Below, in pieces: positions 8,239 through 27,388 of a stretch of DNA of 60,034 nucleotides (position 1 is the stretch's first letter; each line of letters begins with the position of its first letter). The position numbers were made by a program, and so were the translations under genes. Source of the stretch: a virus; the IMG/VR virus record IMGVR_UViG_3300049215_000182, positions 1 to 60,034 of that record. One strand, written 5' to 3'. The notes under the pieces were generated by a model. That model had not been told where the DNA came from and did not search any database. It saw only the letters and a list, made by a program, of their open reading frames with translations.

Positions 8239-8653
8239 GAGAAGTAACAACAGGAGCAGCACAAGAAAATGTCTCAGGGAGACATGTGCCCATATTGTCT
8301 GGAGATGGGAGCCATAGTAAAGGATACCAGACCAGATGAATACGGACGAAGAAGGCGTAAAGAGTGCCCAAGTTGCGGCAAGCGCTGGTCCACGCATGAG
8401 GTCAATCATGAATTAGTACAAGCTATGAGCCTAATTCAGGAAAGGATCTTGCAATATGCTCATGTCTTCACTGAGCTCCAACAGCTGGTGGAGATGCTAC
8501 GCCCATCGAAAGGAGAGAAGGGAGACAGGAGAAAAGATCTACTTCAGGAACTAGCAGACAAATACCGCGAAGAGTACGATCACAATCACAATTACCCTAA
8601 CGCGGATGTGGACGAAGAACCCCCAATCAAGTTCATAGCAGAGGACAACGCAT

Positions 8654-9049
<396 letters not shown>

Positions 9050-10019: not shown

Positions 10020-12668
10020 ATGGACCCTAATACGGTTAATTCTGGGCCCTCGGGGGAGGACCTAGGAGGAAACGTTGTCTTGTTTACTGACCTAAAATCA
10101 GGTAAGGACCCAAAACAGGTATATGATCCAAGAGTCATAGCGGACTTAGCGAAGAGTGGTCTCACACCTGAGGAACTAGATGTACAGTTCCTTAATGCTG
10201 ATATGCGCAGGTCTATTGGTGCGTTAAATGCTGATGGGTATAAGATTCCCTACTACACGATAAGAGGAGCTGTAATTGATTTCTACCGTGTTAAGGTCTT
10301 CAACAGCAATGTGTCAGGCTCTAAGTACAGACAGCCAACTAAGTCCAATAACCATATCTATTTCCCTCCAGCGTTCTACGCCACCCTGATTGCTTGGGTG
10401 AAAAAGTGGCCACAACAAGCCATGCTTGTGATCACCGAGGGAGAGAAGAAGGCTGCCTGTGCTACCAAGATGGGAATCCCTACTGTTGGTCTTGGCGGTG
10501 TCGACTCTTGGAAATCACGGACTATAAGCTTGCCAAAGGAAGTAGAGCTTACCTCCAACAAGCAAGATATCAAAGCCAAGCTACCTGGAAGCAATACCAG
10601 ACTGCCTGAAATGATGACACTTGCTGAAGGCTTCCAAGACATGATGGATGTCATTAACCAGTTCAATATCACGCCTGTACTAATCTTTGATAGTGATATT
10701 GGCGGGACAATGAAAGCAGACATCCAACGATCATTGACTATGCTAGGCTATGAATTGCGATACCTAGGTTTGCCCGCAACTCGCATCCGACAGTTGATCC
10801 TACCAGACATCCACAATAGGCCTGCAGATGCTGTAGTGCATCCTGATGAGGATACTAAGACAGGCCTCGATGACTACTTGATGATCCATGGGCCGTCACA
10901 GATAATCAGGGAGATGCATGAGATCTTCCATGATCCTACTAAATTCCCTAGACATCCTAACTCAAAGGGGTTCTTGGGGACACAACTGAATAACTTCCAA
11001 GACCGAAAACTAGCACAGCAGATTGGCCATGTTATCATGGCAGAGCTTGATTCTGATGGGATGCGATTCCGAGATACTTATTCAGGGCAGCCATACTACT
11101 ACAACAGGGAGACATACAAGTTAATGCCTGCTACTATCCTCAATGGTCGTGGGCAGTTCATGCATGAGACTCCTTTTGGTGTCCTACTGTACCAGAGATT
11201 TGGGCTAGGAGCTGGTGACATCAAAGTCTTGACATGGTTGGCATCACAGTTTACAGGTGAAGAACCCATCGTGGATGTGACACCTCGCCGCGTACGAGCA
11301 TTAGTAACGGAGAAGGAAGATCCAACTAACCCAAATGGTATAGCTATCCAAGTAGGGGACAGCAATTTCATCACTGTCTCATCAAGTACAGAAGAGCCTA
11401 TTAAGCTTTGCACTAATGGTGATCTAGGCTTGCTCTTCGAACAGAATCATGTCGAGCCCCTTGACGTAGATACGGTCTTAGAGGCTTTCGAGCAGATCAA
11501 TGCGGAGCCAGGGCCTTTAGCACCCTGGTGGTGGGAAATCCTCCAGGATACTAACATTGGCAGGAATTTGAAGGACCTCCAGACAGCCTTTCCTGATAAG
11601 AATCCTGATGAGGTAGATTCACTAGATATCCCGATAAGCCCTCAGGGGCATCGTATGCGCGAGTTAGCTACCTTGCTTTACTACATCTCACCTTGGCTCC
11701 AACGTTGGAAAGGTATCCAACTACCTGTGGAGATCATGATAGGTGGTCCTGGAAGTGGTAAGTCTAGCCTCTACGAGATGCGCCTAAATATCCTAACAGG
11801 TCGTCCTCATCTGCGTAATCTGCCTAATGACATTAAGGACTGGCAGGCTTCCCTTGCCAATAGTGGCGGCCTACACGTGATTGATAACGTCCACTTCACC
11901 AAGAATGACCTGAAGCAAAGGATGTCAGACGAGATCTGTCGACTCACTACAGAGCCGCATCCCACGATTGAGGTACGACAACTCTACACTACTGCCGATC
12001 TAATTCGATTCCCGGTTGATGTGACGTTCGGTTTCACAGCTGTCACACAACCCTTCCAGAATGCCGACCTCTTCTCCAGATCCACCATATTCGAGACTTG
12101 CAACTTAGGCAAGGCCCCCGATAGTGATTGGGTGCGGAAGAAGATGGAATTGTTTGGTGGCCGAGAAATGTGGATGGCCCATCAATTGGTATTCCTCCAT
12201 AGGTTCTTCAAGTTGGCAGCCAAACCTGTCGAAGAAGGTGGCTGGGATGAGAATTTCCATACTATCCATCGCCTAGCCAATCTAGAGCAAGCCTTAGGTA
12301 TTGCAGCTCGAGTAGTGGGTATGGATAAATCCTTCGTGCGTAAGACTGTGAAGGAGATCCAGCTTAATGCCTCGACGGATAGCGATTGGGTGCTTCAGGG
12401 TATCATCGAGTTCACGACTAATTGGCGAGAAGGCAGTCCTCAGGATCTTTTCACTATGCTAGACATAGTTGCTTGGGTTGAGATGGGTGAGTTCCGTAGT
12501 AATCCTATCCTATCTAATGCTCGCCGCCTAGACAGGTATTTCAAGGCACATTACAGTCTGATAGCGTCCACAGCCGGAGTCCGAATGGCTGGGGAACAGA
12601 GTGGCCAACAAACATACCGCGTCACAGAGCTCCCCACACCCAAACCCGATCAAGCAGATACGACATAG
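10020..12668 (+). CDS. TOPRIM primase fused to P-loop helicase
   Basis: This 882-residue replication protein, counted from ATG 10020, has a TOPRIM/DUF3854-type primase part: LVITEGEKKAA at about 138-148 provides the acidic Glu, and VLIFDSDIGG at about 222-230 provides the DxD. The C-terminal half has a Walker A motif (GGPGSGKSS, about 575-583) and a Walker B-like motif (LHVIDNVHF, about 616-624). It would open the fork and make primers for the phage polymerase. TTG 9948 lies in frame upstream, but the residues it would add look random and it has no ribosome site. The Walker B motif has Asp-Asn in place of Asp-Glu, which is unusual for a helicase and worth checking. Confidence 0.85.
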   Translation: MDPNTVNSGPSGEDLGGNVVLFTDLKSGKDPKQVYDPRVIADLAKSGLTPEELDVQFLNADMRRSIGALNADGYKIPYYTIRGAVIDFYRVKVFNSNVSGSKYRQPTKSNNHIYFPPAFYATLIAWVKKWPQQAMLVITEGEKKAACATKMGIPTVGLGGVDSWKSRTISLPKEVELTSNKQDIKAKLPGSNTRLPEMMTLAEGFQDMMDVINQFNITPVLIFDSDIGGTMKADIQRSLTMLGYELRYLGLPATRIRQLILPDIHNRPADAVVHPDEDTKTGLDDYLMIHGPSQIIREMHEIFHDPTKFPRHPNSKGFLGTQLNNFQDRKLAQQIGHVIMAELDSDGMRFRDTYSGQPYYYNRETYKLMPATILNGRGQFMHETPFGVLLYQRFGLGAGDIKVLTWLASQFTGEEPIVDVTPRRVRALVTEKEDPTNPNGIAIQVGDSNFITVSSSTEEPIKLCTNGDLGLLFEQNHVEPLDVDTVLEAFEQINAEPGPLAPWWWEILQDTNIGRNLKDLQTAFPDKNPDEVDSLDIPISPQGHRMRELATLLYYISPWLQRWKGIQLPVEIMIGGPGSGKSSLYEMRLNILTGRPHLRNLPNDIKDWQASLANSGGLHVIDNVHFTKNDLKQRMSDEICRLTTEPHPTIEVRQLYTTADLIRFPVDVTFGFTAVTQPFQNADLFSRSTIFETCNLGKAPDSDWVRKKMELFGGREMWMAHQLVFLHRFFKLAAKPVEEGGWDENFHTIHRLANLEQALGIAARVVGMDKSFVRKTVKEIQLNASTDSDWVLQGIIEFTTNWREGSPQDLFTMLDIVAWVEMGEFRSNPILSNARRLDRYFKAHYSLIASTAGVRMAGEQSGQQTYRVTELPTPKPDQADTT

Positions 12669-12711
12669 CTCAACCTAACATAATACCTAATCACCTGAAA
12701 GCTTACACACC

Positions 12712-12804
12712 ATGTATGCCTTACTGCTAATAAGTACCGGAGGAATCTTAGGTGCCGCTGCTCTGTACATCTACATCATCGTCACCCACAAGAACCCGTT
12801 CTAA
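12712..12804 (+). CDS. 30-residue predicted membrane microprotein
   Basis: MYALLLISTGGILGAAALYI continues to a short basic end (THKNPF); almost the whole chain could form one membrane helix. No clear Shine-Dalgarno is present (GAAAG about 10 nt upstream), so the call rests on composition and on the clean frame. It lies between the primase-helicase and repeat A copy 3. Confidence 0.4.
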   Translation: MYALLLISTGGILGAAALYIYIIVTHKNPF

Positions 12805-12810
12805 TGGTTC

Positions 12811-12834
12811 TCGCGGTGCATCGCAGGCGTCTGC
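12811..12834 (+). repeat. Dispersed repeat A, copy 3
   Basis: TCGCGGTGCATCGCAGGCG plus TCTGCC is identical to the copy at 17792-17830 over 24 bp; its 3' flank differs. It lies 6 bp after the microprotein stop. A CTCGAAAAAGAG hairpin follows, just before promoter P7. Confidence 0.75.
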
Positions 12835-12894
12835 CTGGCCACAGTTCGAGCGGGCGTCTCGAAAAAGAGATTTTTGGTGACCATCAGATTTCAC

Positions 12895-12924
12895 TTGATT
12901 GTCCTATATTGTCTAAGCTATAAT
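12895..12924 (+). promoter_or_regulatory. Sigma70-type promoter P7
   Basis: TTGATT (12895-12900), an 18-bp spacer and TATAAT (12919-12924). It drives 12976-14534 and the structured RNA between those genes. Confidence 0.8.
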
Positions 12925-12975
12925 CTAGGAGTTAGCAAGCATACAGCTTAGCGCTCTTTTTGAAGGATACACCAG

Positions 12976-13509
12976 ATGAAGGCTCACACCAAGGATACCT
13001 CTCACGTGGAGACTGTAGCTCAGGAAACTCCACCGGCGGCTCAGGCTCCGGCTCATGTCGCTCCAGTCACTGCTCATGTCGAGCACATCACCCCGGCAGC
13101 GCCGACTCATATCCATGTCGAAGCTCCCATCGCTGAAGCCACTCCCGCAACTGCTCCTGTCACCGCGAGCGAGACCGCGAGCGAGACCACGGCTGCAGCC
13201 GAAGCTGCGGCGCTAGAAGTTCCCAAGCCTGAGTATCTTCCGGCTGCGAAGGAAGGTGCGAAAGTCATGCTGACGAACGGTGTGGCACGTGTCGACTACA
13301 TCAAGAAGCGGTACGCTGAGGGTGCCACGCGCTCTGCGATCACTAAGGAGGTCAACGAACTCCGTACTCCCGGCAGCGCACCGATCCCCTACCAGATCAT
13401 CTTCGGGGCGACCAAACCCAAGCCGAAGCCTGCTCCTGCTGAAGATGCGGCGCCGGCTGCGGCTGAAGTTCCTCCGGTGGCGCTCGAAGCCATTGCCGAA
13501 ACTGCGTAA
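12976..13509 (+). CDS. Ala/Pro-rich hypothetical protein (177 aa)
   Basis: Residues 1-80 are low-complexity Ala/Pro/Thr/His/Glu with repeated HV and ETA units. A short ordered segment follows (GAKVMLTNGVARVDYIKKRY; GATRSAITKEVNELR; IPYQIIFGATK) that could be a small helix-turn-helix-like DNA-binding fold. The C-terminus is again Ala/Glu/Pro-rich. The composition recalls histone-like or scaffold proteins, but no homologue is recognised. It lies close behind P7 and codes in a more GC-rich style than the primase gene. Confidence 0.7.
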   Translation: MKAHTKDTSHVETVAQETPPAAQAPAHVAPVTAHVEHITPAAPTHIHVEAPIAEATPATAPVTASETASETTAAAEAAALEVPKPEYLPAAKEGAKVMLTNGVARVDYIKKRYAEGATRSAITKEVNELRTPGSAPIPYQIIFGATKPKPKPAPAEDAAPAAAEVPPVALEAIAETA

Positions 13510-13533
13510 CACTAACACTTGGTTTTGAGATGT

Positions 13534-13674
13534 CTCCAGTAGGGGTAGCTCCTCTTTGGACGCCTACTGGAGGCTAGAACCTGGAGGTGGCTGAGAGCTG
13601 ATCTGTTCGGCAGCTGTCCTAGCCCTTCCGGGATCCGTGAGAGGAGTAGTCTGTTGACCCCAGGCTGCTCCTCT
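13534..13674 (+). ncRNA. Structured non-coding stretch with three strong hairpins
   Basis: Between the genes ending at 13509 and starting at 13857 the + strand can form a 10-bp stem, 13534-13543 with 13563-13572 (CTCCAGTAGG/CCTACTGGAG); a two-part stem, 13589-13600 with 13611-13624; and a 10-bp stem, 13640-13649 with 13665-13674, containing one G-U pair. No gene fits here. The density of stable hairpins suggests a transcribed RNA, possibly one unit with the tRNA-like part that follows. Class and function are unknown. Confidence 0.45.
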
Positions 13675-13692
13675 TCATGTATCTAACGTAGA

Positions 13693-13827
13693 GGGCCCTA
13701 AGCTTGATGGTGAGCTTTCTATAGTACGCGGCTATAGGACTTTAGTTAGGTAGTTGTTTAGCGGCAACGAGAAGACTAAGGGAATCCTGCAAGAGGATAG
13801 AGGTGGGTTCGAATCCCACAGGGCCTA
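13693..13827 (+). ncRNA. tRNA-like RNA with enlarged middle region
   Basis: A 7-bp acceptor-like stem pairs 13693-13699 with 13820-13826 (one G-U). A D-arm-like GCTT-GATGGT-GAGC follows at 13702-13715. A perfect T arm, GTGGG-TTCGAAT-CCCAC, lies at 13803-13819, and A13827 is the discriminator. A 5-bp stem with 7-nt loop at 13720-13736 could be the anticodon arm (loop TACGCGG), but it lacks the usual U33. About 66 nt of extra hairpins (GTTG...CAAC, ATCCT...AGGAT) replace a normal variable loop. It could be a degenerate tRNA, a tRNA mimic or part of a larger RNA. Confidence 0.45.
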
Positions 13828-13856
13828 TCAATAAGTTAGGAAGGCGAGACATAACG

Positions 13857-14534
13857 ATGGCAGCATTTACCTTCACAAGTCATATGCCATATATGTCAAG
13901 CATGAATAGGTTTAATCAGATCTATCAGCGGGCAATAGATATGCGACGTAATCGCGGTGAAGACGAAACTGTGATGACGTGGCAAATGTTGAAGATCATC
14001 ATGGAAAGGCTAGAAGAGATGTCACAGTCAAATCAATCAACAGCACAACTGCTCCAAGCAGAGATGAATGACCTCAAGACTGATCTCATCGTGAGTGCAG
14101 GGCAGGTCAACTCTCTGGTGAACTACATAAATAGTCTCCAGACCCAGCTCTCACAGGCTCTCGCCAATCTCGCCAATCAGGGCATCGATCCGAATCTCCT
14201 AGCAGAGCTGACAGCAATTGATACTGCGGTCAAGCAGAACCAGGCCTCTCTAAGCGCCAACCAGTCCGTGGCTCCTGCCTTCGCGCCAGCACCTACTCCT
14301 GTGGCACCTGTACCAGCTCCAACGCCTATGGTTGGTGGGGCTGCAACAAGTTCCACTGTTACCGAGGTAACTTCGGGTGGGACCACAATGTCGGAAAACA
14401 ATTCTCCTGCAACCAAACCCCCGCTAAGTAACGTGTCCAGCGGGGGCACGGCAACAGCAACAACAGCAACAACAGCAACAGTAGCAACAGTTGCAGCTCC
14501 GACAACATCGGGCGGAGCCTCAACAGCTACCTAG
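13857..14534 (+). CDS. Hypothetical coiled-coil protein with Ala/Thr-rich tail (225 aa)
   Basis: ATG 13857 follows GGAAGG, and a longer frame reaching back to 13803 would run through the tRNA-like T arm, so it is rejected. Residues 10-120 are helical (MTWQMLKIIMERLEEMSQSN; LLQAEMNDLKTDLIVSAGQV) and likely to form a coiled coil. The C-terminal 100 residues are low-complexity Pro/Ala/Thr/Val/Gly, partly from an ACAGCAACA DNA repeat (about 14450-14490). No family is recognised. The heptad pattern suggests self-association. Confidence 0.65.
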   Translation: MAAFTFTSHMPYMSSMNRFNQIYQRAIDMRRNRGEDETVMTWQMLKIIMERLEEMSQSNQSTAQLLQAEMNDLKTDLIVSAGQVNSLVNYINSLQTQLSQALANLANQGIDPNLLAELTAIDTAVKQNQASLSANQSVAPAFAPAPTPVAPVPAPTPMVGGAATSSTVTEVTSGGTTMSENNSPATKPPLSNVSSGGTATATTATTATVATVAAPTTSGGASTAT

Positions 14535-14825
14535 CAGTTTCACGAATCGGGTTACTGGCGCAGCTGAGGGCATACTGACAGGTGTGTTACTCCGCGAGGT
14601 GATAACCTGATAACCTGATAGTCTGCATTACCTTGGATATCTGCACGGAGTCGTGGGTACCAAGGGACAGCACTGTAGGGCCGTGGTGTTTGTAGACTTA
14701 AGTCATGTAGCGTTGACTCCGATAGCGACTACGTGTGCGAACGGTTCCTATTACGGGGGTAATAGGAACTAGACTAGATAGGGCTAGCAGACTACACTAG
14801 ACTGTAGCTAAGGTGGAGGTTGGTT
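14535..14825 (+). other. Gene-free stretch with strong hairpins
   Basis: No gene is seen. The DNA holds a tandem ATAACCTG repeat (about 14601-14618), a CCTTGG/CCAAGG stem around 14631-14666, and a perfect 11-bp stem, 14744-14754 with 14759-14769, with a GGGG loop. No T-run follows, so it is not an ordinary terminator. CTAGACT repeats lie at about 14769-14802. It resembles the structured region at 13534-13827 in style and may be a long structured leader of the gene at 14826. Confidence 0.5.
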
Positions 14826-15380
14826 ATGCCAAGCTTTGAGCATATCTATAATAATGCCTTGAATGCCTTAAAGATTAGGCCACCACCGGAAAGATTAGTC
14901 AGTCTTGATCCAGGAGCCACCACAGGTGTGGCTGTCTTTCGTAGGCTCAGCCTACATATGGCTGCACAACTCAACACAAGCATGCCTGATGTTGCCTTAG
15001 AGCAACTCACACTGTTCTTCGATCAGCAGCGTCCTACAGAGGTAGTCCTTGAAGACTACCGTGTATACGCCAATCGAGTTGAGCAGCATGCTGGATCATC
15101 CTTGCAGACTCCCCGACTGATAGGGATGATTGAGACCTTATGCATGCAGCGTAAGATCCCATTCCATAAACAGCCTGCAGGTACTGCAAAGTATTTCTGT
15201 ACTGATGACAAGCTCAGAGAGTGGGGCATGTATGCAACAGGACAGCGTCATGCACGTGATGCTGTCAGACATGCAGCATACTACATTCTGTTCCCACCCA
15301 AGACTCGGACGAGTGAGAACATAGTCAAGATAGCTGTCCCAAACAAAACCTTGAGAGGAGGAGGTCGCCATGTCGGATAA
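14826..15380 (+). CDS. RuvC-like RNase H-fold nuclease (Holliday-junction resolvase type)
   Basis: This 184-residue protein begins its fold with VSLDPGATTGVAVF at residues 25-38, the first catalytic Asp of the RuvC/RNase H family, followed by VVLEDYRVY at 73-81 and the late HARDAVRHAAYY motif. These match the four acidic positions of phage RuvC-like resolvases, which cut branched DNA during recombination and before packaging. ATG 14826 has GGAGG at 6 nt; TTG 14820 lies in frame but is not needed. It overlaps the kinase gene by 11 nt and belongs with the recombination genes further right. Confidence 0.8.
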   Translation: MPSFEHIYNNALNALKIRPPPERLVSLDPGATTGVAVFRRLSLHMAAQLNTSMPDVALEQLTLFFDQQRPTEVVLEDYRVYANRVEQHAGSSLQTPRLIGMIETLCMQRKIPFHKQPAGTAKYFCTDDKLREWGMYATGQRHARDAVRHAAYYILFPPKTRTSENIVKIAVPNKTLRGGGRHVG

Positions 15381-24471: not shown

Positions 24472-25329
24472 ATGGATTTGCACCGGTCATTCGTTTTACA
24501 TAGTGGGGGTGTTGATAGTTCGACAGCCCTTGCTATGGCGAGAGCTGAAGCTTATTCAGAGGGTATCTGGCATGATGTCGTGAGCATCTCTGTCGACTAC
24601 GGACAAAGACACAAGAAAGAAACGGAGTTCGCACAGAAACTCTGTGACTTCTTCGGTGTCAGCCATGAGACAGTCTCGATGGCATATCCACCGAAGAGCA
24701 TGCTCACAGATCCAAGTATCAAGCTTCCAAGTTCGACTTATGCTGAGTTGCCAGAAGGCATCTCGCCTACGTACGTTCCCTTCAGGAATGGACAGCTTCT
24801 GTCACGAATCGCAGGCATTGCACAGGGCTGGATCATGGAACAAGATAAGCTGGGGATCAACGCAAAAGCCTCTATCTGGTTCGGCGCCCATGCTGATGAT
24901 GCAGCTCGAGATGCCTATCCAGACTGTACCCCCGAGTTCATAGGTGTCATGGCGTCTGCTATCCACCTCGGCACCTATCGTCGCGTGAGGCTCATCACCC
25001 CATTCACCCATATGGAGAAGAAGTCTATCGTCGAGATTGGCTCCAAGTTGGGACTGCCTTACGATCTAACGTGGAGCTGCTATGACGGGAAAGAGAAACA
25101 CTGCGGCACTTGCCCTACATGCCGTGCTCGCAAAGAAGCCTTCCAGCTAGCGCAACTACCGGATCCTACCACATATGAAGATGGTCTCCTAGTGTCTCAC
25201 GGATCACTTCACGGTACTTATACAACACCAGCCCCAGATTACATGGTTGATGAGCCAAAAGCCTTTGTCCAGCGAGGGCTCAAACCAGATCACGGCACAG
25301 ACATGGGAAATGATACCATACCATTCTAA
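24472..25329 (+). CDS. queC: 7-cyano-7-deazaguanine (preQ0) synthase QueC
   Basis: QueC converts 7-carboxy-7-deazaguanine to preQ0, using ATP and ammonia. The PP-loop SGGVDS is at residues 11-16, SVDYGQRHKKE follows, and GAHADDAARDAYPDC carries the substrate pocket. The zinc site is formed by C203, C211, C214 and C217 (CYDGKEKHCGTCPTC). At 285 residues it is longer than cellular QueC (about 230) by a C-terminal tail of roughly 60 residues. No glutamine-amidotransferase (Gat) domain is fused, in contrast to the Gat-QueC of phage 9g, so the end product should stay at preQ0. It is the first gene of the cluster. Confidence 0.92.
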   Translation: MDLHRSFVLHSGGVDSSTALAMARAEAYSEGIWHDVVSISVDYGQRHKKETEFAQKLCDFFGVSHETVSMAYPPKSMLTDPSIKLPSSTYAELPEGISPTYVPFRNGQLLSRIAGIAQGWIMEQDKLGINAKASIWFGAHADDAARDAYPDCTPEFIGVMASAIHLGTYRRVRLITPFTHMEKKSIVEIGSKLGLPYDLTWSCYDGKEKHCGTCPTCRARKEAFQLAQLPDPTTYEDGLLVSHGSLHGTYTTPAPDYMVDEPKAFVQRGLKPDHGTDMGNDTIPF

Positions 25330-25356
25330 TCAAATTCGAGGAGAAAGGTTGATACG

Positions 25357-25881
25357 ATGGGAGGCTTTTCGATTACGAGACAAATAGGCATCGATGTTGG
25401 TCATCGTGTGCCTACACATGGCTCGAAGTGCTGGAACTGGCATGGACATCGATACACGATCAATGCCACGTGCAAGTCATCAGAACTACACAGAGAAGGA
25501 TTCCAGACTGATATGGTTCTAGACTTCGGCTTCCTCAAGCATGTCATGATGGAGTACTGTGATGACCTATGTGATCATGGAACTGTGGTATGGGTTGATG
25601 ATCCACTACTGCATGTCATGATACCAGCTAAACAGTACCGTGACATGGTTATCCACACAGTGAAGCGGGAACCCATGATCTACTGCCTAGTAAACGAAAA
25701 CCGCGACAGAAATCAGACAAAGGTTCTCGTTGTGCCTTTCATTCCTACAGCTGAACGCCTTGCAGAGTTCTGGTTTAAGCTGATGGTAGATAGAGTCCAT
25801 GAGCTGAGTCAAGGCCTTGCAGAGCTGAGTGAGGTCGAGGTCTTCGAGACACCTAACTGCTCTGCGAGGTACCCACAATGA
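25357..25881 (+). CDS. queD: 6-carboxytetrahydropterin synthase QueD
   Basis: QueD makes 6-carboxy-tetrahydropterin from dihydroneopterin triphosphate. The zinc ligands H16, H29 and H31 are seen in VGHRVP and CWNWHGH, and the catalytic Cys is C25. A DLCDHGTVV motif corresponds to the usual LDH region, and VFETPNCSARY near the end to the Glu substrate-binding motif. At 174 residues it is somewhat longer than cellular QueD, with an insert around DPLLHVMIPAKQYRDMV. The stop overlaps the queE start (ATGA). Confidence 0.9.
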   Translation: MGGFSITRQIGIDVGHRVPTHGSKCWNWHGHRYTINATCKSSELHREGFQTDMVLDFGFLKHVMMEYCDDLCDHGTVVWVDDPLLHVMIPAKQYRDMVIHTVKREPMIYCLVNENRDRNQTKVLVVPFIPTAERLAEFWFKLMVDRVHELSQGLAELSEVEVFETPNCSARYPQ

Positions 25882-26645
25882 CTACCGATGCTAAAGTATC
25901 TTACGAGTACATAGCCGAAGACAAACGGCTGCCTGTCATTGAGATATTTGGTCCTGTTATTCAGGGTGAGGGAGCAATGATAGGCCGTGTTACCCATTTC
26001 CTACGTCTGGGAGGATGCGGGTACAGGTGTGACTGGTGTGACAGCCTCCACGCAGTCCTCCCTGAAGAGGTGAAGAAGAACGCCAAGCGCCTAGCAGTTA
26101 CTCAGATCACGGATGCCCTCTTGCAACTTGGAAGCCCCCACACTGGAGCCAAGTGGGTAACTATCTCTGGTGGTGATCCTGTGATGTATGAGCTCTCACC
26201 GCTGATCGATAGACTTCACTATGAGGGCTTTCGGGTAGCCATCGAGACACAGGGGCAGTTCTTCAAGCAGTGGCTTATCAACTGCGATAGTGTCACAGTC
26301 TCTCCCAAGCCACCAAGCAGTGGCATGGCTGAGAAACTTGACCGCGACATGCTCTCAGCCTACTCATCTCTCATTGCACCCCCTCGCATTAGCCTCAAGG
26401 TGGTGATAATGGATCTTGAAGATCTTGAGTGGGCAACTCAACTACATGCTGACTATCCTAGGGTCAACTTCTTCCTGTCAGTAGGTACACAGAATAACGG
26501 CGAGACTGACAGTGATGTGTTAGCTAGCAAGATCCTTACCAGGTATCGCTGGCTGATCGAAGAGGCTCAGAAGTATGGCCTTGCTAATGTCTCCATCCTT
26601 CCGCAAATGCACGCCATGCTGTATGGTCACAAGTTGGGAGTCTAA
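25878..26645 (+). CDS. queE: 7-carboxy-7-deazaguanine synthase QueE (radical SAM)
   Basis: QueE is a radical SAM enzyme that contracts the pterin ring. EIFGPVIQGEGAMIGR is the QueE start signature. The 4Fe-4S cluster Cys triad is C47, C51 and C54 (CGYRCDWC). WVTISGGDPVMYE is the GGE-like SAM-binding motif, with Asp in place of Glu. VTVSPKPPSSG is the typical late strand. The length of 255 residues is normal for this family. It overlaps queD by 4 nt and is followed by folE after 5 bp. Confidence 0.92.
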   Translation: MTTDAKVSYEYIAEDKRLPVIEIFGPVIQGEGAMIGRVTHFLRLGGCGYRCDWCDSLHAVLPEEVKKNAKRLAVTQITDALLQLGSPHTGAKWVTISGGDPVMYELSPLIDRLHYEGFRVAIETQGQFFKQWLINCDSVTVSPKPPSSGMAEKLDRDMLSAYSSLIAPPRISLKVVIMDLEDLEWATQLHADYPRVNFFLSVGTQNNGETDSDVLASKILTRYRWLIEEAQKYGLANVSILPQMHAMLYGHKLGV

Positions 26646-26650
26646 CAGAT

Positions 26651-27388
26651 ATGCGTAAATCCTCAAGTAAGATAACACCTGCACAGGCTTTCAATAGTCA
26701 CCACAGATACAGGAAAAAAGGAAAGCCAACACCTGTAGCTCCCATTCCAACTGAACTCGAAGCCGAAGCCGAAGCCGAAGCCGAAGCCGACGGGCTCAAT
26801 CCGGACTACGAGCCTGTACCTGGCGTGAAGCAGATAGCTGTAGATGCCATGGCTCATGTGCTGAACATCATGTATGGTTGGGAATCTGATGATGCGCAAG
26901 CTAAGACACCTCTGAGGTTCCTCAAGTACCTAGCTGAGTTCAACAAGCCTTACACTCCGAAGGATGTCTTAGGAGACCTCTTCGAGGGAACTAAGGCTGA
27001 GAACATCGGAGGCGTCATCGTACAAAGCAACATACCTTTTAGGATGATCTGTGAACATCACCTTCTTCCTGCTGTGGGTCACGCTTGCGTTGGTTATATA
27101 CCTAGGGGCAAAGTTGTCGGCCTCTCCAAGATTGCCCGCCTTGTACAAGCAGTTGGTACATCACGTCCAGGCATGCAGGAAATCTTCTGCGAAGAGATAA
27201 CAGACGTACTACATGACTACACAGATGCCAACGGAACTATAACAGTGATCAAGAGCCTACATACCTGTATGGCCTGTCGAGGTGTGTATACTCCTGACAC
27301 CCTGACCTCCACATCTTGCGTGCGAGGACTCTTCCGAGATGTGCCATCAGCACGATCGGAATTCTTTGCCGTAGCCGGCATCAAGTAG
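26651..27388 (+). CDS. folE: GTP cyclohydrolase I FolE
   Basis: FolE converts GTP to dihydroneopterin triphosphate, the first step of the 7-deazaguanine pathway; a phage copy removes dependence on the host enzyme. CEHHLLP at residues 134-140 gives zinc ligands C134 and H137, and TCMACRGVYT gives the third ligand, C206. VGYIPRGKVVGLSKIARLVQ is the family core. The N-terminal 60 residues are extra and include five Glu-Ala units from a 6-bp DNA repeat (about 26759-26790), a likely flexible linker. Confidence 0.92.
   Translation: MRKSSSKITPAQAFNSHHRYRKKGKPTPVAPIPTELEAEAEAEAEADGLNPDYEPVPGVKQIAVDAMAHVLNIMYGWESDDAQAKTPLRFLKYLAEFNKPYTPKDVLGDLFEGTKAENIGGVIVQSNIPFRMICEHHLLPAVGHACVGYIPRGKVVGLSKIARLVQAVGTSRPGMQEIFCEEITDVLHDYTDANGTITVIKSLHTCMACRGVYTPDTLTSTSCVRGLFRDVPSARSEFFAVAGIK

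What the first reader, a model, noticed from the sequence alone, without database searches (positions are those of the whole stretch)
13534..13827. tRNA-like RNA with a perfect T arm and enlarged centre
Acceptor stem, D arm and a textbook T arm are in the right order, but the anticodon loop has no U33 and about 66 nt of extra hairpins stand where a variable loop belongs. Three strong hairpins lie just upstream. It could be a tRNA mimic, a decayed or intron-carrying tRNA, a tmRNA-like RNA or a decoy for host tRNA enzymes.
Basis: seen in the sequence. Interest (0 to 1): 0.62.

Follow-up and report, generated by a model that had tools for sequence, protein, structure and literature searches.

The report
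Phage tRNA-like RNA with enlarged centre
An uncultured phage carries, between two genes, a well-folded RNA that copies the top half of a transfer RNA (the part host tRNA enzymes grip) but whose lower half has been rebuilt so it should not read codons; it resembles in design, not in sequence family, the still unexplained 'RNA C' of phage T4.

Summary
At 13693-13827 (+), in a non-coding gap between two phage genes, a 135-nt RNA has a 7-bp acceptor stem, a D-like arm with a GG loop, an anticodon-like arm, two extra hairpins and a textbook T arm. Nearly all helix pairs are near-certain in the ensemble. A strict T arm plus acceptor is expected about 0.001 times in a random 60-kb sequence. It is not an ordinary tRNA: ARAGORN and Rfam reject it (ARAGORN also after the extra arms are set aside); the anticodon-like stem is 8 bp and U33 is A. 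Its 3' half resembles tRNA genes of many phages, and a 22-mer occurs in viral contigs only in a jumbo-phage tRNA-Met. The 24-mer is absent from about 85,000 prokaryote genomes and no integrase was found, so an attP copy of a host tRNA end is unlikely. Relatives at 40-50% protein identity lack it, so covariation could not be tested. Best reading: a tRNA-derived, non-decoding phage RNA, probably cut out by host tRNA enzymes, built like T4 RNA C but not a member of that family (its covariance model does not match). Processing and function are inferred. New variant of a known kind.

The parts
13693..13827 (+). tRNA-like RNA, predicted mature species of 135 nt (5' end by RNase P-like cut before 13693, discriminator A13827)
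   Evidence: fold and pair probabilities; Monte Carlo; cut sites inferred from tRNA rules
13693..13699 (+). acceptor stem, 5' strand GGGCCCU
   Evidence: pairs with 13820-13826, probability 0.83-1.0
13820..13826 (+). acceptor stem, 3' strand AGGGCCU; followed by AUCA, no encoded CCA
13701..13716 (+). D-like arm, loop GAUGGU with the GG pair
13717..13739 (+). anticodon-like arm, 8-bp stem (canonical 5), loop UACGCGG, A at position 33
13740..13781 (+). extra arm: 8 bp, internal loop, 6 bp
13784..13798 (+). small hairpin, like a class II variable arm (5 bp, 5-nt loop)
13803..13819 (+). T arm GUGGG-UUCGAAU-CCCAC
13521..13581 (+). upstream hairpin 1
13582..13630 (+). upstream hairpin 2
13631..13684 (+). 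upstream hairpin 3
12895..12924 (+). sigma-70-like promoter TTGATT-18-TATAAT, likely source of the transcript
   Evidence: scan as a whole not above chance; similar sequences visible at the same place in relatives L006, L007, L010, L023
12976..13509 (+). upstream gene: disordered, Ala/Pro-rich ends and a three-helix domain, conserved in relatives
13857..14534 (+). downstream gene, unknown function, SD-like AGGAAGG just after the RNA

Best explanation
A phage-encoded, tRNA-derived, non-decoding RNA. It is transcribed with the gene before it, probably from the promoter at 12895-12924. The acceptor/T-arm half (and the D-loop GG that would lock onto the T loop) lets host RNase P cut before 13693 and host 3' tRNA enzymes trim the end, releasing a stable RNA of about 135 nt and separating the two messages. 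The lengthened anticodon-like arm and the extra arms rule out ordinary decoding and carry whatever the RNA does in trans, most likely occupying or recruiting host factors that grip the tRNA elbow and acceptor. Shown: the fold, its improbability by chance, tRNA likeness of the 3' half, failure as a tRNA by two programs. Inferred: transcription, processing, stability and any role in trans.
For: Unique fold with all tRNA arms in order; chance about 0.001 per 60 kb; the covariance model of this RNA, searched over 1.3 Mb, finds as next-best matches mostly ordinary tRNAs (tRNA-Phe 20.5 bits, tRNA-Gln 16.3); BLAST of the 3' half hits annotated phage tRNA-Lys, -Cys, -Ala, -Leu, -Arg at marginal E-values; a 22-mer through T arm and acceptor occurs in viral contigs only in a jumbo-phage tRNA-Met; non-coding gap; no intrinsic terminator on the + strand in 12600-14900, so the 3' end must come from processing or lie further on; T4 RNA C, a proven stable RNA, has the same plan.
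Against: Single copy: no homologous RNA in any relative, so no covariation. No transcript data. CCA not encoded. The D-loop is short (6 nt in the best fold) and position 8 is A, not U.
Confidence: 0.55

Rival explanations
1. A decaying tRNA gene: a phage tRNA that lost its decoding half by insertions and is on its way out.
For: The 3' half is close to real phage tRNAs; AUCA is one change from ACCA; relatives lack it, so it is dispensable across the group. A relative (L027) carries another degenerate tRNA-like element elsewhere.
Against: Decay should break stems; here every arm is intact, with pair probabilities near 1 and z = -3.2. The inserted arms are themselves well folded, and even without them the core fails as a tRNA.
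Confidence: 0.2
2. A cis-acting element only: a tRNA-shaped RNase P (or RNase III, at the upstream hairpins) cutting site between the two genes, the excised piece having no function of its own.
For: Lies between two genes, shortly before an SD; two relatives have simple hairpins after the homologous upstream gene instead (L006, L023), so this spot tends to end or divide the transcript.
Against: A minimal substrate would not need a D-like arm, anticodon-like arm and 63 extra nt.
Confidence: 0.15
3. An attachment site: the T arm and acceptor end are a copy of the 3' end of a host tRNA gene used for integration.
For: Such copies seem to occur in this phage set (L084 looks like the 3' part of a tRNA-Glu with CCA, recognised by eye).
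Against: The exact 24-mer is absent from one genome each of about 85,000 species; no integrase in the ORFs scanned (not every ORF was scanned); no CCA; a copied 3' end would not come with a matching acceptor 5' strand and intervening arms.
Confidence: 0.04
4. Chance fold with no function.
For: Only one copy known; the first-stage scan may have looked at many windows.
Against: 0.001 expected per 60 kb for T arm plus acceptor alone, before counting the other arms and the folding energy.
Confidence: 0.06

Closest known systems
Phage T4 RNA C (species 1 RNA, rnaC)
   Same: 139 nt against 135; T arm with canonical UUCGAAU loop; acceptor-like closing stem; a hairpin directly before the T arm; large non-tRNA centre; no decoding arm; lies directly after another small RNA (RNA D in T4, three hairpins here).
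   Different: No match to the RNA C covariance model; different arms; RNA C sits in a tRNA cluster and its acceptor is broken by a U-U internal loop; here there are no tRNAs and there are full acceptor, D-like and anticodon-like arms.
Class II tRNA (long variable arm: Leu, Ser, Tyr)
   Same: Acceptor, D arm, anticodon-like arm with 7-nt loop, short hairpin in the variable position, T arm.
   Different: 8-bp anticodon stem, no U33, an extra 42-nt arm; below the Rfam (21.9 of 29 bits) and ARAGORN thresholds.
tmRNA
   Same: tRNA-like end on a longer RNA.
   Different: The acceptor closes locally within 135 nt instead of joining the ends of a large RNA; no family match and no tag frame called at normal thresholds.
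GOLLD and ROOL RNAs
   Same: Structured phage RNAs often found near tRNAs (PMC12286853).
   Different: Much larger; no Rfam match here.
Plant-virus 3' tRNA-like structures
   Same: tRNA mimicry at the acceptor end.
   Different: Ends of RNA virus genomes, unrelated; from general knowledge and PMC4810235.

Membership tests
tRNA (RF00005) | Covariance score at or above the gathering score | tested here: not met
   21.9 bits against 29, carried mainly by the T arm
tRNA (RF00005) | 7-bp acceptor and canonical T arm | tested here: met
tRNA (RF00005) | 5-bp anticodon stem with 7-nt loop and U33 | tested here: not met
   8-bp stem, A at 33
tRNA (RF00005) | Recognised by ARAGORN, also with introns | tested here: not met
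tRNA (RF00005) | Aminoacylation | not testable with these tools
   needs biochemistry
T4 RNA C | Match to a covariance model of seven RNA C copies | tested here: not met
   no match in the window up to E = 10
T4 RNA C | tRNA-like 3' end (T arm plus acceptor) on a non-decoding RNA of about 140 nt | tested here: met
T4 RNA C | Stable transcript of defined size during infection | not testable with these tools
   northern blot exists for T4 (PMC9697503); none for this phage
tmRNA | Family match or ARAGORN call | tested here: not met
   one tmRNA call only at a 50% threshold that also yields five spurious tRNAs
Integration attachment site (tRNA 3' end) | Identity to a host tRNA 3' end | tested here: not met
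   24-mer absent from the genome collection
Integration attachment site (tRNA 3' end) | Integrase gene | tested here: inconclusive
   none in the ORFs scanned; not every ORF was scanned and the record may be incomplete

The most novel reading that the evidence does not exclude
A new class of phage non-coding RNA: a neofunctionalised tRNA whose upper half is kept as a handle for host tRNA enzymes or elongation factor Tu while added arms do something else (for example blocking a tRNA-directed host defence), arising independently of T4 RNA C.
Probability: 0.2. Interest if true: 0.75.

Novelty: new variant of a known kind. Interest (0 to 1): 0.45.

Why it matters
T4 RNA C has been known for decades without a function (stated as unknown in PMC3014915 and PMC9697503). 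A second phage RNA of the same plan but a different family suggests that keeping a tRNA's top half while replacing its decoding half may be a recurring phage strategy, and ARAGORN and Rfam miss both. That makes a directed search for such RNAs worthwhile and gives a comparison for working out what they do.

Tried and rejected
Homologous RNA in relatives: local alignment of the gap with the matching gaps of L005, L006, L007, L010 and L023 is not clearly better than shuffles. L007 has a strongly folded stretch in the same place ending in a T-arm-like CGGG-UUCCAGU-CCCG, but no acceptor, a broken T stem and a competing pairing, so it is only suggestive. Exact DNA patterns in viral contigs and genomes. 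RNA C model on the window: nothing. Intron-carrying tRNA. Structure of the upstream protein: low confidence outside a three-helix domain, no significant PDB match. A first Monte Carlo of 60 sequences was too small and was replaced by one of 2000.

Full report
WHAT IS THERE. The window is a 60,034-base virus record of a tailed phage: portal, terminase large subunit, tail proteins, DNA polymerase, helicase, plus a queC/queD/queE/GTP cyclohydrolase cluster. It has no ordinary tRNA or tmRNA and no Rfam match at curated thresholds. The finding lies in the gap between genes 12976-13509 and 13857-14534, with no convincing reading frame across it.

THE FOLD. 13690-13830 folds at -52.6 kcal/mol, z = -3.2; 13520-13830 at -139.8, z = -5.75 with none of 100 shuffles as good. 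Pair probabilities are 0.9-1.0 for nearly all helix pairs. In order: acceptor 7 bp; D-like arm; 8-bp anticodon-like arm with loop UACGCGG; a 42-nt arm; a 15-nt hairpin; T arm GUGGG-UUCGAAU-CCCAC; the acceptor's other strand; then AUCA. Three hairpins precede it (13521-13581, 13582-13630, 13631-13684).

CHANCE. In 2000 random 60-kb sequences with the window's dinucleotide make-up, a strict T arm occurred 44 times on either strand and a T arm with a 7-bp acceptor twice: 0.022 and 0.001 per window. In nine relative genomes only one other comparable element was found.

IT IS tRNA-LIKE BUT NOT A tRNA. RF00005 reaches 21.9 bits, below its 29-bit threshold. ARAGORN finds nothing, with or without introns, nor in the core with the extra arms set aside, except at a lowered threshold. 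Lacking U33 and with an anticodon stem three pairs too long, it should not decode (established knowledge of tRNA). Yet its nearest matches are mostly tRNAs: a covariance model of this one RNA, run over 1.3 Mb, next-best matches an ordinary phage tRNA-Phe (20.5 bits) and tRNA-Gln (16.3); the last 53 bases hit annotated tRNA-Lys, -Cys, -Ala, -Leu and -Arg of many phages at marginal E-values; and the 22-mer GTGGGTTCGAATCCCACAGGGC occurs in one viral contig, in a jumbo-phage tRNA-Met. The 5' half matches nothing meaningful. This fits a tRNA-derived upper half with a new centre.

RELATIVES. Through the large DUF3854 gene and a RuvC-like gene, relatives at 40-50% protein identity were found that share the gene order DUF3854 gene, 12976-type gene, RuvC-like gene. 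None carries this RNA: gap sequences do not align clearly better than shuffles and the model finds none. L006 and L023 have simple hairpins after the upstream gene. L007 has a strongly folded stretch in the same place (z about -5.7) ending in a T-arm-like hairpin without an acceptor; suggestive only. L027 has, elsewhere, directly after its helicase gene, another small tRNA-like element with T arm, near-complete acceptor and encoded CCA but no proper D or anticodon arm.

CONTEXT AND MECHANISM. A promoter-like site (TTGATT-18-TATAAT, 12895-12924) precedes the upstream gene; similar sequences stand at that place in several relatives, although the scan as a whole is not above chance. No + strand intrinsic terminator was found, so the RNA is probably part of a longer transcript. 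An acceptor stacked on a T arm is the minimal RNase P substrate (established knowledge); cleavage before 13693 and 3' trimming would release about 135 nt and part the two genes. This is inference.

COMPARISON WITH T4 RNA C. T4 RNA C (139 nt, NC_000866 70908-71046) has a canonical T arm, a closing acceptor-like stem, a hairpin just before the T arm and a large foreign centre; it is found in 718 phage records but no Rfam family matches it at curated thresholds. In seven diverged copies the acceptor shows an A-U to G-C exchange and the T stem G-C/U-A/A-U exchanges, so that type of RNA appears to be under selection to keep its tRNA-like end. It is a late T4 RNA, confirmed by northern blot, of unknown function (PMC9697503, PMC3014915). 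A covariance model of RNA C does not match the window: same plan, not the same family.

VERDICT. Observation confirmed; interpretation as a tRNA-like RNA supported, intron and tmRNA readings not. Best filed as a new variant of a known kind, with function open and only one copy known.

Noticed in passing
L003:1409-1547 (T4 RNA C) and alignment A6: In seven diverged copies of T4 RNA C, UUGACG in the large arm and CGUCAA in the hairpin before the T arm are invariant and fully complementary: a possible kissing pseudoknot. No Rfam 15 family matches RNA C at curated thresholds.
   Followed up: partly
L027:17248-17319: A second tRNA-like element in a relative: T arm, acceptor (6 of 7 pairs) and CCA, but no proper D or anticodon arm; starts 2 nt after the helicase gene.
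   Followed up: partly
L007:11313-11690: Strongly folded gap in the same position as the finding, ending in a T-arm-like hairpin without acceptor.
   Followed up: partly
window 24472-27388: Cluster matching QueC, QueD, QueE and GTP cyclohydrolase, suggesting 7-deazaguanine DNA modification; no transglycosylase (DpdA) identified in the ORFs scanned.
   Followed up: no
L084, minus strand near position 40: Looks like the 3' part of a tRNA-Glu gene with CCA, possibly an attachment site.
   Followed up: partly
L112:1261-1634: A tmRNA is predicted just upstream of the RuvC-like gene of a distant relative.
   Followed up: no
window 12976-13509: Conserved small protein with disordered ends and a three-helix domain, copies standing behind a promoter-like sequence; no family match.
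   Followed up: partly
window 8269-8748: ORF with an NrdR-like zinc ribbon at its N-terminus.
   Followed up: no
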